In this document: piece by piece, positions 38,937 through 44,036 of the stretch
Layout: every line of letters starts with the position of its first letter
Numbering within the stretch: the stretch's first letter is position 1
NCBI RefSeq assembly: GCF_030409845.1
Contig: NZ_JAUFQQ010000003.1
Location: forward strand, 1,302,001-1,366,000
From: Flavobacterium branchiarum
Lineage (GTDB): Bacteria > Bacteroidota > Bacteroidia > Flavobacteriales > Flavobacteriaceae
Direction: 5' to 3'
Length of the DNA: 64,000 bases
Made by a program: the position numbers and the translations under genes
Notes under the pieces: generated by a model
Told to the model about the DNA's origin: nothing
The model's database searches: none
Seen by the model: the letters and a program-made list of their open reading frames with translations, nothing else

Positions 38937-39593
38937 TTAAGTATGTAAATCCAATCCAAAAGTAGTTCTTAAAAGCTCTATGTTTGGATTTATTTCTAAT
39001 AAACGATTGTAGCGATCTTGATCGTTAAGACTTTTTTTGAATTCAAAACTTTCATTTACAATAACATTAATAGTGACGTCGTGATTATGTAAATGCCCTC
39101 TTAAGTGTCCTAATAAACCATTCATCTCTTTTTCAAAATCTAGCTTAGAACCTTCATTAGGTAGTTCTATAGAGATGATTGTTCCGTTTAAAACAGGATC
39201 ATTTATAAGCAATAGTGATTCCATTATTTTAAAACCTTTCTCTCCTAAACGTTGTGCGTATTTATTCCATTGCAACAACATTTCGGTTTCTGTAAACTCC
39301 TCAGTAGGTAAATGAGTTGTTGGTTTTACATATGATTTGTTGCTTTCCTCTAATTCTTTTTTCTTACGAATGCTTGATAATGAAAATACAGAAACACCAG
39401 GTTTTACAGTATTTGCAGCTACAGGTTTAGCTTCAGCTACTTTTTCGGGAGCTTGAGTTTCAGACTTTACAGGGTCTGGAGTTGAATTTTGGGTTGCAAC
39501 AGTTTCTGCTTTCTTCTCGGCAGGAGCCTTAAGTTCTGTGATTGAGAAAGTAGGATTTCTATAATAAGTAGGCGGAATTATGTATTGGTTAAC
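38937..39593 (-). CDS. dnaX: Tau-specific C-terminal region of DnaX, in the -1 frame
   Basis: On the minus strand the frame opened by a -1 shift at the slip site continues without a stop from the G at 39593 to the stop at 38937-38939. Its 218 residues run 'VNQYIIPPTYYRNPTFS...' through a Pro/Ala/Glu/Lys-rich linker, 'VSVFSLSSIRKKKELEES' (about 60-80) and a conserved end domain 'TETEMLLQWNKYAQRLGEKGFKIMESLLLI' (about 103-130). That is the layout of tau domains IV-V. An ATG at 39281 exists internally but lies within the domain and is not a credible independent start. The frame can be used only by frameshifting, by an indel in the A-run, or by a sequencing correction. Confidence 0.85.
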   Translation of the reverse strand, partial: VNQYIIPPTYYRNPTFSITELKAPAEKKAETVATQNSTPDPVKSETQAPEKVAEAKPVAANTVKPGVSVFSLSSIRKKKELEESNKSYVKPTTHLPTEEFTETEMLLQWNKYAQRLGEKGFKIMESLLLINDPVLNGTIISIELPNEGSKLDFEKEMNGLLGHLRGHLHNHDVTINVIVNESFEFKKSLNDQDRYNRLLEINPNIELLRTTFGLDLHT

Positions 39594-40663
39594 TTTTTTT
39601 TTTCTCCATCATAATTGATAGAGGCTAATTGCATTAAACAAAGTTCGACCAATAAGCGTTGATTCTGACTCAGTTTGTATTTTAAATCACAATCATTAGC
39701 GATTTCGATTCCTTTTAAAAGAAATTCTTGACTCGTTTTTTGAGATTGCGACGCATACATTTGTTGTGCTTGTTCACCAACTTCAAGAAGAGCTATAGTA
39801 GCAGGAGTTTTGCTAACTAATAAATCTCTAAAGTGAGATGCTAGTCCAGCAATAAAATGATGACCGTCAAAACCTTTGGCTAAGATGTCATTGTAAGCAA
39901 CTAATAATTCAGGAATTTTATTTTCAAGTATAAAATCAGTAATAGCAATATAAGTTTCGTAATCTAAAACGTTTAGGTTTTCGGTAACTGCCTGACGTGT
40001 TAAATTAGTACCGCAATAAGAAACAACTCGGTCAAAAATAGACAAAGCGTCACGCATTGCTCCATCAGCCTTTTGTGCAATAATGTGTAGTGCATCGTCT
40101 TCATAAACGACACCTTGACTAGTTGCAACTTCAGCTAGGTGCTCTTTTGCATCTTTTACTGTGATTCTTTTGAAGTCAAAAATTTGACAACGAGATAAAA
40201 TCGTTGGAATGATTTTATGCTTCTCGGTTGTTGCTAATATAAAGATGGCATGTTTAGGCGGTTCTTCTAATGTTTTCAAAAAAGCATTAAAAGCGGCCGA
40301 AGATAACATGTGCACCTCGTCAATAATATAAACTTTGTATTGTCCTGTTTGTGGAGGGATTCTAACTTGATCAATCAAACTACGAATATCATCAACAGAG
40401 TTGTTTGAAGCAGCATCTAATTCAAAAACGTTAAATGCAAAATCTTCATTTGGATCATCATAACCAGGCTGATTTATTTTTCGAGCAAGAATACGTGCAC
40501 AAGTTGTTTTACCAACTCCACGCGGTCCAGTAAATAATAAAGCCGAAGCTAGGTGATTACTTTCTATGGCATTTAGTAAAGTGTTGGTAATGGCTTTTTG
40601 TCCCACAACATCTTTAAATGTCTGTGGGCGATATTTACGAGCCGATACTACAAATTGTTCCAT
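39578..40663 (-). CDS. dnaX: DNA polymerase III gamma/tau subunit, gamma-like N-terminal product
   Basis: The zero-frame product is 361 residues if the start is the ATG at 40663 ('MEQFVVSARKYRPQTF'; a start seven codons earlier is possible). It contains the AAA+ ATPase with Walker A 'GPRGVGKTT' (46-54), 'YIIDEVHMLS', sensor 'LATTEKHKI' and 'LSRCQIFDFKR', and the clamp-loader collar domain to about residue 350. The zinc-module cysteines of E. coli DnaX are missing; an acidic 'YDDPNEDF' stretch replaces them. After 'INYDGEKKK' the zero frame reaches a stop four codons later, just as E. coli gamma ends after its shift site. The tau continuation lies in the -1 frame (38937-39593). Confidence 0.95.
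   Translation of the reverse strand: MEQFVVSARKYRPQTFKDVVGQKAITNTLLNAIESNHLASALLFTGPRGVGKTTCARILARKINQPGYDDPNEDFAFNVFELDAASNNSVDDIRSLIDQVRIPPQTGQYKVYIIDEVHMLSSAAFNAFLKTLEEPPKHAIFILATTEKHKIIPTILSRCQIFDFKRITVKDAKEHLAEVATSQGVVYEDDALHIIAQKADGAMRDALSIFDRVVSYCGTNLTRQAVTENLNVLDYETYIAITDFILENKIPELLVAYNDILAKGFDGHHFIAGLASHFRDLLVSKTPATIALLEVGEQAQQMYASQSQKTSQEFLLKGIEIANDCDLKYKLSQNQRLLVELCLMQLASINYDGEKKKLTNT
39593..39603 (-). promoter_or_regulatory. Slippery run in dnaX: ten A's followed by G
   Basis: On the minus strand a run of ten A's (39603 to 39594) is followed by G (39593), ending in the heptamer A AAA AAG (39599-39593). A -1 shift here joins the 361-residue gamma-like frame to the 218-residue tau-specific frame. 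E. coli dnaX uses the same heptamer for ribosomal frameshifting and Thermus uses an A-run for transcriptional slippage. GGAG lies four bases before the run; no strong downstream hairpin is obvious. Confidence 0.7.
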
Positions 40664-41830: not shown

Positions 41831-41838
41831 TATCTTTG
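41831..41838 (+). promoter_or_regulatory. -7 box of nucleotidyltransferase copy 1
   Basis: TATCTTTG fits TAnnTTTG; the ATG (41860) is 21 bases on. An upstream TTG start at 41836 would lie inside this box, which supports 41860. A small hairpin CTTCTA/TAGAAG lies just upstream. Confidence 0.5.
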
Positions 41839-41859
41839 TTTCATAATAATAATCGCTCA

Positions 41860-42738
41860 ATGAAGAATTCTATTGCTTACCTGCCACAAAAGAAACAAAG
41901 AGATCTCGTTCGTTTTGTAGAAGAAATAACAAAAAGACTTCCGAAAACTCAGATGATTATTCTTTACGGAAGTTATGCAAGAAACGAATATGTAAATCAT
42001 GATGAAAAAGTAGAATTTGGTATTCCTACTTCATTCAGAAGTGATTATGATATTCTCGTAGTAACAGATAGTGTAACAGATCAACGTGCAAGCCGAATGC
42101 TTGATGCGATTGATAATATGTATTATCGGGATCCAGATTTGCAAACTCCAGTTGAGTTTATTCATGAAAACATCAAGCGATTAAATGAATATATCGATGC
42201 AGGGAGATATTTTTATACTCAAATAAAAGAAGAAGGAATTTTACTTTATAACAGTGAGAAATTTACTCTTGCCGAACAACGCCCGCTTCGTTTTGATGAA
42301 ATAAAAGAGCAGGCAGAAGAATATTTTAAAGATAAATTTGAAAAAGCAAATTTCTTTTTTGAAGATGCAATATTAAACTATGAAAAAGAACGCTATCAAA
42401 TGGCTTCTTTTTATTTGCATCAAGCTTGCGAAAACAGTTTTCAGACAATTCGATTGGTACATACGTTAACAAACCCAAAGCAACATAATTTGGAAAAATT
42501 GTTTTCTTTCACAAGAAAATATTCAACAGATTTACCTTCTGTTTTTCCCAATGATAATCCCGAAGAAAAACGATTATTCGAACTCCTGAAAAGTGCTTAT
42601 ATCGAGGCTCGTTATAATCCTAAGTTCATCGTAACCAAAGAAGATATCGATGCATTGTTGCCTAAAGTAAAACGTTTGTTAGAAATAACAAAGCGAATAT
42701 GTGAAGCTAAAATCGCCGAATACGCAAAACAGGTATAA
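41860..42738 (+). CDS. Nucleotidyltransferase-HEPN fusion protein, copy 1
   Basis: A 292-residue protein. The N-terminal half (about 1-130) is a Pol-beta-fold minimal nucleotidyltransferase with 'YGSYARNEY' (36-44; the GSxxR motif) and 'RSDYDILVV' (60-68). The C-terminal half (about 150-292) is a HEPN domain of paired helices with 'KSAYIEARYNPKF' (244-256). I see no R-x4-6-H RNase motif in it. Stand-alone MNT/HEPN proteins are toxin-antitoxin pairs; the fused type also has housekeeping or defence uses, so the role here is uncertain. It is a tandem duplicate of the gene at 43152 and differs from it mainly at residues 161-182. Confidence 0.87.
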   Translation: MKNSIAYLPQKKQRDLVRFVEEITKRLPKTQMIILYGSYARNEYVNHDEKVEFGIPTSFRSDYDILVVTDSVTDQRASRMLDAIDNMYYRDPDLQTPVEFIHENIKRLNEYIDAGRYFYTQIKEEGILLYNSEKFTLAEQRPLRFDEIKEQAEEYFKDKFEKANFFFEDAILNYEKERYQMASFYLHQACENSFQTIRLVHTLTNPKQHNLEKLFSFTRKYSTDLPSVFPNDNPEEKRLFELLKSAYIEARYNPKFIVTKEDIDALLPKVKRLLEITKRICEAKIAEYAKQV

Positions 42739-43122: not shown

Positions 43123-43130
43123 TATCTTTG
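43123..43130 (+). promoter_or_regulatory. -7 box of nucleotidyltransferase copy 2
   Basis: TATCTTTG, identical in sequence and distance to the box of copy 1 because the whole upstream region is duplicated. Confidence 0.5.
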
Positions 43131-43151
43131 TTTCATAATAATAATCGCTCA

Positions 43152-44036
43152 ATGAAGAATTCTATTGCTTACCTGCCACAAAAGAAACAAAGAGATCTCG
43201 TTCGTTTTGTAGAAGAAATAACAAAAAGACTTCCGAAAACTCAGATGATTATTCTCTACGGAAGTTATGCAAGAAACGAATATGTTAATCATGATGAAAA
43301 AGTAGAATTTGGTATTCCTACTTCATTCAGAAGTGATTATGATATTCTCGTAGTAACAGATGGTGTAACAGATCAACGTGCAAGCCGAATGCTTGATGCG
43401 ATTGATAATATGTATTATCGGGACCCAGATTTGCAAACTCCAGTTGAGTTTATTCATGAAAACATCAAGCGATTAAATGAATATATCGATGCAGGCAGGT
43501 ATTTTTATACCGAAATTAAAGAAGAAGGAATTTTACTTTACGATAGCGGAAAATTTACTCTTGCAGAACAACGCCCGCTTCGTTTTGATGAAATAAAAGA
43601 ACAGGCAGAAGAATATTTTAAAGATAAATTTAGCAGAGCCAATAGTTTTATGAGAAGTTCTATGCATGGTTATAATGATAAAGATTTTAGAATAGTTTCT
43701 TTTTATCTTCATCAAGCTTGCGAAAATAGTTTTCAGACAATTCGATTGGTACATACATTAACAAATCCGAAGCAACATAATTTGGAAAAATTATTTTCTT
43801 TCACAAGAAAATATTCAACAGATTTACCTTCTATTTTTCCCAATGATAATCCCGAAGAAAAACGATTATTCGAACTCCTGAAAAGTGCTTATATCGAGGC
43901 TCGTTATAATCCTAAGTTCATCGTAACCAAAGAAGATATCGATGCATTGTTGCCTAAAGTAAAACGTTTGTTAGAAATAACAAAGCGAATATGTGAAGCT
44001 CAAATCGCCGAATACGCAAAACAGGTGCAATCTTAG
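43152..44036 (+). CDS. Nucleotidyltransferase-HEPN fusion protein, copy 2
   Basis: A 294-residue tandem copy of the preceding gene with the same 'YGSYARNEY' and 'SDYDILVV' motifs and two extra C-terminal residues. Outside residues 161-182 only about six residues differ. Inside that 22-residue window, at the first HEPN helix, most residues differ (copy 2 'SRANSFMRSSMHGYNDKDF' versus copy 1 'EKANFFFEDAILNYEKERY'). This pattern suggests replacement of a specificity segment, or gene conversion sparing it, rather than general drift. Confidence 0.87.
   Translation: MKNSIAYLPQKKQRDLVRFVEEITKRLPKTQMIILYGSYARNEYVNHDEKVEFGIPTSFRSDYDILVVTDGVTDQRASRMLDAIDNMYYRDPDLQTPVEFIHENIKRLNEYIDAGRYFYTEIKEEGILLYDSGKFTLAEQRPLRFDEIKEQAEEYFKDKFSRANSFMRSSMHGYNDKDFRIVSFYLHQACENSFQTIRLVHTLTNPKQHNLEKLFSFTRKYSTDLPSIFPNDNPEEKRLFELLKSAYIEARYNPKFIVTKEDIDALLPKVKRLLEITKRICEAQIAEYAKQVQS

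What the first reader, a model, noticed from the sequence alone, without database searches (positions are those of the whole stretch)
38937..40663. dnaX is split at an A10-G slip site, giving gamma-like and tau-like reading frames
The zero frame ends four codons after 'EKKK', while the -1 frame runs on for 218 residues with typical tau linker and C-terminal domain. The junction ends in A AAA AAG, the same heptamer used in E. coli dnaX for -1 frameshifting; the long A-run also fits transcriptional slippage as in Thermus. Whether other flavobacterial dnaX genes are continuous is not something I can establish here, so this could be a programmed event, a recent mutation, or a homopolymer sequencing error.
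Basis: partly seen in the sequence, partly recalled or inferred. Interest (0 to 1): 0.75.

Follow-up and report, generated by a model that had tools for sequence, protein, structure and literature searches.

The report
Slippery A-run splits replication gene dnaX
In this Flavobacterium a core gene of the DNA-copying machine is written in two reading frames joined by a run of ten A's that its relatives also keep, so the cell most likely relies on RNA polymerase stuttering at the run to make both the short and the long protein; this is a known kind of trick, seen here to be widespread and strikingly indifferent to which frame the DNA itself uses.

Summary
On the minus strand dnaX (38937-40663) has a 361-codon zero frame ending EKKK-LTNT-stop. 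An A10 run (39594-39603) lies at the end of it, and the tau half continues for 218 codons in the -1 frame.

It is neither a sequencing error nor a recent mutation. Of 320 distinct related loci, 306 have 9-11 A's here. In the 303 of these where the tau frame could be assigned (266 with exactly ten), tau lies in frame 0 (164), -1 (132) or +1 (7). In 287 of 303 both non-tau frames stop within 8 codons, against 22-25% at other positions of the same genes. The frame switched at least 16-34 times on a DnaX tree, depending on branch support. Of 14 loci without the run, 13 are continuous and one is split.

The conserved element is thus "about ten A's plus stops in both other frames", not the E. coli heptamer. 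Best explanation: programmed RNA-polymerase slippage, as in Thermus dnaX. Unslipped mRNA gives gamma and slipped mRNA gives tau.

Two-ORF dnaX with ten A's was reported in 2013 (PMC3711429), so this is a member of a known kind. I did not find the repeated frame drift described. No RNA or protein data were available.

The parts
39578..40663 (-). Zero frame of dnaX, 361 aa: clamp-loader ATPase, lid and domain III; gamma-like product ending KKKLTNT
   Evidence: Pfam PF13177, PF22608, PF12169; NCBIfam TIGR02397 at 379 bits, cut-off 250
39594..39603 (-). A10 slip tract (T10 on the plus strand)
   Evidence: 9-11 A's in 306 of 320 distinct related loci
39578..39580 (-). TAA closing the zero frame, four codons after the tract; it lies inside the tau-frame codons ATA-ATT
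   Evidence: the first Ile of this Ile-Ile is ATA in 184 of 189 genus and family genes in which the motif was found, against 75 of 690 Ile-Ile pairs in N domains
39589..39591 (-). TAA closing the third (+1) frame directly after the tract
   Evidence: Sequence; frame +1 open for 0 codons
38937..39593 (-). tau linker and C-terminal region in the -1 frame, 218 codons plus stop
   Evidence: NCBIfam gamma/tau model positions 412-613 of 614, 83 bits; dN/dS 0.11-0.24 in 12 pairs with close relatives

Best explanation
dnaX here is a two-frame gene decoded by programmed transcriptional slippage. RNA polymerase meets ten template T's, about the length of its RNA:DNA hybrid, and can re-align there without mismatch, so the mRNAs carry varied numbers of A's. 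mRNAs with the templated ten A's are read to KLTNT-stop and give a gamma-like clamp-loader subunit (361 aa). mRNAs with 9 or 12 A's stop at once and give nearly the same gamma (357-358 aa). mRNAs with 11 (or 8, 14) A's enter the open frame and give tau (about 575 aa). Shown: the anatomy, the conservation of the run and of the flanking stops, and the indifference to template frame. Inferred: that RNA polymerase rather than the ribosome slips, that both products are made, and in what amounts.
For: Run of 9-11 A's in 306 of 320 loci while tau moves between frames 0 (164), -1 (132) and +1 (7) in the 303 assigned. Both non-tau frames stop within 4 codons in 253 of 303 and within 8 in 287 of 303, against 8.3% and 24.9% (N domain) and 7.4% and 22.0% (linker and C part) at other positions. 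At least 34 frame switches on the tree, 31 or 16 when branches under 80 or 95 are collapsed favourably. Tau in +1 in 7 genes is out of reach of a -1 ribosomal shift. The heptamer is in register in only 8 of 39 split genes outside the genus set. The 60 bases downstream are not more stable than other windows of the gene. Bacteroidia ribosomes fail to recognise Shine-Dalgarno sequences (PMC9976891, abstract). The hybrid of T. thermophilus RNA polymerase is 9-10 bp, and slippage at nine T's makes tau and gamma there (PMC5009743, passages). Predicted products per run length.
Against: No RNA or protein data. The genome shows only tRNA-Lys(UUU), the situation that favours ribosomal slipping on A AAA AAG in E. 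coli (passage). A GGAG motif abuts the run in 108 of 111 genus and 71 of 122 family genes (1 of 68 class), although it is also what Asp-Gly-Glu codons give. Ribosomes may slide on poly-A in more than one direction (recalled), which would also ignore the frame. L246 is split with no run. In six of 303 genes one alternative frame stays open for 14-85 codons. In the class alone the link between having the run and a non-zero frame is not significant (17 of 68 against 0 of 12, p = 0.06).
Confidence: 0.8

Rival explanations
1. Programmed -1 ribosomal frameshifting on A AAA AAG (or A AAA AAA within the run): an E. coli-type event with the roles of gamma and tau reversed. It may act alone or add to polymerase slippage in this genus.
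For: The heptamer is in register in the window and in 97 of 100 split genus genes. Only tRNA-Lys(UUU) was found. Atkins et al. discuss reversed dnaX as apparent ribosomal frameshifting, with Chlorobium phaeobacteroides as a candidate (PMC5009743, passage).
Against: Heptamer in register in 8 of 39 split genes outside the genus; tau in +1 in 7 genes; run kept near ten although seven bases would do; no stable downstream structure; 5-base Shine-Dalgarno motifs upstream in 0 of 111 genus, 2 of 122 family and 6 of 68 class genes. F. johnsoniae prfB frameshifting is reported as low (PMC12421855, passage).
Confidence: 0.15
2. Homopolymer sequencing error, a recent mutation or a pseudogene in this strain.
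For: Homopolymers are error-prone in some methods; the gene is split in the assembly.
Against: Same A10 and same split in the nearest relatives (L032, L033) and in 97 of 111 genus genes with A10 and tau in -1. C part under purifying selection, dN/dS 0.11-0.24 in 12 pairs. Only one strong dnaX match in G000 was listed.
Confidence: 0.02
3. Gene fission: the C half is made as a separate protein from its own start, with no frameshift.
For: The C half is not in frame with the N half, and a 114-aa ORF starting with ATG at 39281 exists in it.
Against: In 134 of 139 split genes no ATG, GTG or TTG lies within 10 codons after the run; in the genus the first lies a median of 87 codons in and varies from 14 to 134. 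The same gene is fused in frame in 102 of 122 family genes.
Confidence: 0.02
4. DNA-level phase variation: replication slippage in the run switches the gene between on and off states in the population.
For: Long A-runs are prone to replication slippage; one genus gene with A9 (L048) puts tau in +1.
Against: The run keeps its length (266 of 303 exactly ten), stops in both other frames are kept, and a core replication gene is an unlikely switch (inference). I had one genome per species, so strain variation was not tested.
Confidence: 0.01

Closest known systems
Two-ORF dnaX with poly-A (GeneTack dnaX cluster; Antonov et al. 2013, PMC3711429; abstract and passages seen)
   Same: N-terminal ORF and tau remainder in the -1 frame; ten A's at the junction in nine of their 17 genes; recoding needed for tau; transcriptional slippage suggested
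   Different: I could not see their species list (Supplementary Figure S3), so whether Flavobacterium is among them is open. They report -1 cases only; here frames 0, -1 and +1 occur among relatives with the run kept.
Thermus thermophilus dnaX, transcriptional slippage at nine A's (passages in PMC5009743, and PMC1088944; original paper not read)
   Same: Long A-run, stops close by in the non-tau frames, gamma and tau from one gene
   Different: There the templated frame is tau and slippage gives gamma; in the window the templated frame is gamma. Slippage there is measured, here it is inferred.
Escherichia coli dnaX, -1 ribosomal frameshift at A AAA AAG (passages in PMC3711429 and PMC5009743)
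   Same: Heptamer in the zero-frame register; two products; tRNA-Lys(UUU) as the only lysine tRNA found
   Different: There the shift gives gamma and is helped by a Shine-Dalgarno-like sequence and a hairpin; here the templated product is gamma and no such hairpin or 5-base Shine-Dalgarno motif was found in the genus.

Membership tests
Two-ORF poly-A dnaX (PMC3711429) | dnaX split into two ORFs with tau in the -1 frame | tested here: met
Two-ORF poly-A dnaX (PMC3711429) | Poly-A stretch (ten A's in nine of 17) at the junction | tested here: met
   A10 at 39594-39603
Two-ORF poly-A dnaX (PMC3711429) | Conserved across genera rather than a private mutation | tested here: met
   Genus, family, class and further loci
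Thermus-type transcriptional slippage | Run of about nine or more A's | tested here: met
   A10
Thermus-type transcriptional slippage | Stops soon after the run in both non-tau frames | tested here: met
   Window: 4 and 0 codons; within 8 codons in 287 of 303
Thermus-type transcriptional slippage | mRNAs of mixed run length | not testable with these tools
   No RNA data
Thermus-type transcriptional slippage | tau in the templated zero frame | tested here: not met
   Window tau is in -1; met in 102 of 122 family genes
E. coli-type ribosomal frameshift | A AAA AAG in the zero-frame register | tested here: met
E. coli-type ribosomal frameshift | Shine-Dalgarno-like stimulator upstream | tested here: inconclusive
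   No 5-base motif in 111 genus genes, but a 4-base motif in 108, GGAG abutting the run; Bacteroidia ribosomes are reported not to use such sequences (PMC9976891)
E. coli-type ribosomal frameshift | Stable hairpin downstream | tested here: not met
   In 40 genus genes sampled, the 60 bases after the run are weaker than the gene average (mean -5.0 against -8.2 kcal/mol)
E. coli-type ribosomal frameshift | The frameshift yields the shorter product | tested here: not met
   The templated product is the short one

The most novel reading that the evidence does not exclude
Across the Bacteroidota dnaX is a frame-blind gene. The A-run makes the templated frame of the tau half nearly irrelevant, so that frame drifts (at least 16-34 switches among 0, -1 and +1 on the tree) while selection holds only the run length and stops in whichever two frames are not tau. 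The order 0 > -1 > +1 among lineages outside the genus would then be an evolutionary read-out of how often the polymerase adds none, one or two A's.
Probability: 0.65. Interest if true: 0.65.

Novelty: new member of a known kind. Interest (0 to 1): 0.5.

Why it matters
Gene finders will see this core replication gene as two fragments in a genus where the split is normal. The comparison also bears on an open point, polymerase or ribosome, for the two-ORF dnaX: a run that stays while the frame wanders to all three positions points to the polymerase and can be tested directly by sequencing RNA. If true, the templated reading frame of a large part of a core gene is free to drift, and the lineages are natural replicates for studying bacterial slippage.

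Tried and rejected
Sequencing error or recent mutation: rejected through relatives. E. coli-type signal as the conserved element: rejected as a general account, not excluded as a helper in the genus. Own start for the C half: start codon within 10 codons in 5 of 139 split genes. Amino-acid constraint in the 15 codons after the run: dN/dS 0.18-1.35 in 12 pairs, too few codons to conclude; dS there was 0.11-0.64 in 11 of 12 pairs (1.46 in one), against 1.05-1.70 over the C part, a hint of synonymous constraint only (14 pairs were asked for, two had been removed as duplicates). Class-only test of run against frame: p = 0.06.

Rows dropped or not taken. Four loci without a clear tau frame: L246 (split, no run), L252, L270, L367. 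Of 118 non-genus family genomes, two were not analysed (G298 without full match, G236 at a contig end). The genus search covered 199 genomes but its listing was cut; I took its 30 loci and later 13 chosen genomes, ten of them because their open frame was near 600 aa, so frame-0 genes are over-represented in the genus set. That set also holds named loci chosen by similarity, some from misnamed bins. Class: 82 loci taken, not all class matches. The 20 loci were chosen by open-frame length (15 split, 5 continuous) and the 20 from rows with long open frames; these 40 are outside the counts of 303, 306, 316 and 320. One search left out 16 reverse-oriented of 111 loci; later scripts took them in. 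The tree used 243 of 316 rows and a quick method; frames are still clustered on it (34 switches against a shuffled mean of 60.3).

Full report
What is there. On the minus strand, window 38937-40663 is dnaX. The zero frame (39578-40663) has 361 codons and ends YDGEKKK-LTNT-stop. The A10 run is at 39594-39603. The frame one base back is open for 218 codons, with the stop at 38937-38939. The N part carries the clamp-loader ATPase, lid and domain III. N and C parts match the same NCBIfam gamma/tau model in order, with 612.6 and 83.0 bits; each alone is under that model's cut-off of 685. The C part has no Pfam match.

Relatives. In the genus (199 genomes searched, all with a match, listing cut) the open frame of most listed rows ends near 360-415 aa, as in the window; I saw ten listed rows near 600. 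With named loci and searches of the family (120 genomes), phylum (118) and class (99), I held 320 distinct loci. Of these, 306 have 9-11 A's at the place, and 316 have an assigned tau frame, 303 of them with the run. Genus set, 111: A10 in 107, A9 in 1, A11 in 3; tau in -1 in 99, 0 in 11, +1 in 1. Family outside it, 122: A10 in 104, A11 in 14, A9 in 4; tau in 0 in 102, -1 in 16, +1 in 4. Order, 2: A11, -1. Class, 80: 68 with the run (tau in 0 in 51, -1 in 15, +1 in 2) and 12 without (all 0). Phylum, 1: no run, continuous. Twenty further loci, chosen by open-frame length and mostly from one family coded f15, have A9-A10 in 20 of 20, with 15 tau in -1 and 5 in 0, and both other frames closed within 8 codons in 20 of 20. 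Twenty more phylum loci, chosen among long open frames, have A9-A10 near the same place in 10 and not in the other 10.

Why this is a programmed site. In the rest of the 303 genes there are six A-runs of nine or more in 530 kb. Both non-tau frames meet a stop within 4 codons in 253 of 303 (genus 110 of 111, family 97 of 122, order 0 of 2, class 46 of 68) and within 8 in 287 of 303. At other codons of the same genes the shares are 8.3% and 24.9% (N domain, 96,359 positions) and 7.4% and 22.0% (linker and C part, 28,785 positions). The stop in the tau+1 frame is made by ATA followed by AT within an Ile-Ile pair; its first Ile is ATA in 184 of the 189 genus and family genes where the motif was found, against 75 of 690 Ile-Ile pairs in N domains. 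Related sequences are not independent, so these are descriptions and not p-values.

Why RNA polymerase rather than the ribosome. The run is kept while the frame of tau moves. The least number of switches on a DnaX N-domain tree of 243 rows is 34; it is 31 with branches under 80 collapsed and resolved favourably, and 16 at 95. Shuffled labels give 60.3, 54.5 and 25.8 on average, so the frame is still clustered. Seven of 303 genes have tau in +1. Outside the genus set 8 of 39 split genes have A AAA AAG in the zero-frame register; inside it 97 of 100 do. The 60 bases after the run are not unusually stable: mean share of other windows that are more stable is 0.76 in 40 genus genes, 0.62 in 40 family, 0.50 in 40 class. 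Bacteroidia ribosomes are reported to fail to recognise Shine-Dalgarno sequences (PMC9976891, abstract), and prfB frameshifting is reported low in F. johnsoniae (PMC12421855, passage). Ten A's match the 9-10 bp hybrid given for T. thermophilus RNA polymerase (PMC5009743, passage).

Results against that reading. Only tRNA-Lys(UUU), five copies, was found by ARAGORN among the loci scanned; these cover each distinct score among the 76 tRNA hits, while some equal-scoring copies were not scanned. A GGAG motif abuts the run in 108 of 111 genus and 71 of 122 family genes, 1 of 68 in the class. Within the class the link between run and non-zero frame is not significant (p = 0.06). One family gene, L246, is split with no run. 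L252 has A10 at the place in an open frame and the tau-like end in another frame after a later A11 run. L082, L159, L161, L364, L369 and L378 have one alternative frame open for 14-85 codons. Ribosomal slipping or sliding in this genus is therefore not excluded.

What each mRNA would give in the window: ten A's, 361 aa ending KLTNT; nine, 357; twelve, 358; eleven, 575 (tau); eight, 574; fourteen, 576. Without slippage there would be no tau; if tau is needed, as in other bacteria (recalled), slippage must be frequent. The order 0 > -1 > +1 among family and class genes fits a polymerase that mostly copies exactly, less often adds one A and least often two; this is an inference.

Known or new. 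Antonov et al. 2013 (PMC3711429, abstract and passages) described two-ORF dnaX in 17 genes of 12 genera, nine with ten A's, and suggested transcriptional slippage. Atkins et al. [quoted passage not shown] The window's gene is of that kind. The searches listed no paper on the Flavobacterium case; the frame drift was not itself a search term, and the library is open-licence PMC only.

Noticed in passing
41836-42738 and 43128-44036 (+): Two near-identical neighbouring ORFs (300 and 302 aa) with a nucleotidyltransferase-like N part and a HEPN domain (Pfam PF05168), each with a T9 run about 100 bases upstream: a recent tandem duplication beside dnaX.
   Followed up: partly
L246 (G216): dnaX of a family member with a small genome, split into two frames without any long A-run at the junction; it does not fit the slippage account.
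   Followed up: partly
L252 (G256): dnaX with A10 at the usual place but the tau-like end in another frame after a second run, A11, about 200 bases on: possibly a moved or doubled slip site.
   Followed up: partly
L404-L408, L410-L412: Distant phylum members with exactly nine A's after codon 358-365 of a continuous dnaX and both other frames closed within 0-12 codons: the Thermus-like arrangement.
   Followed up: no
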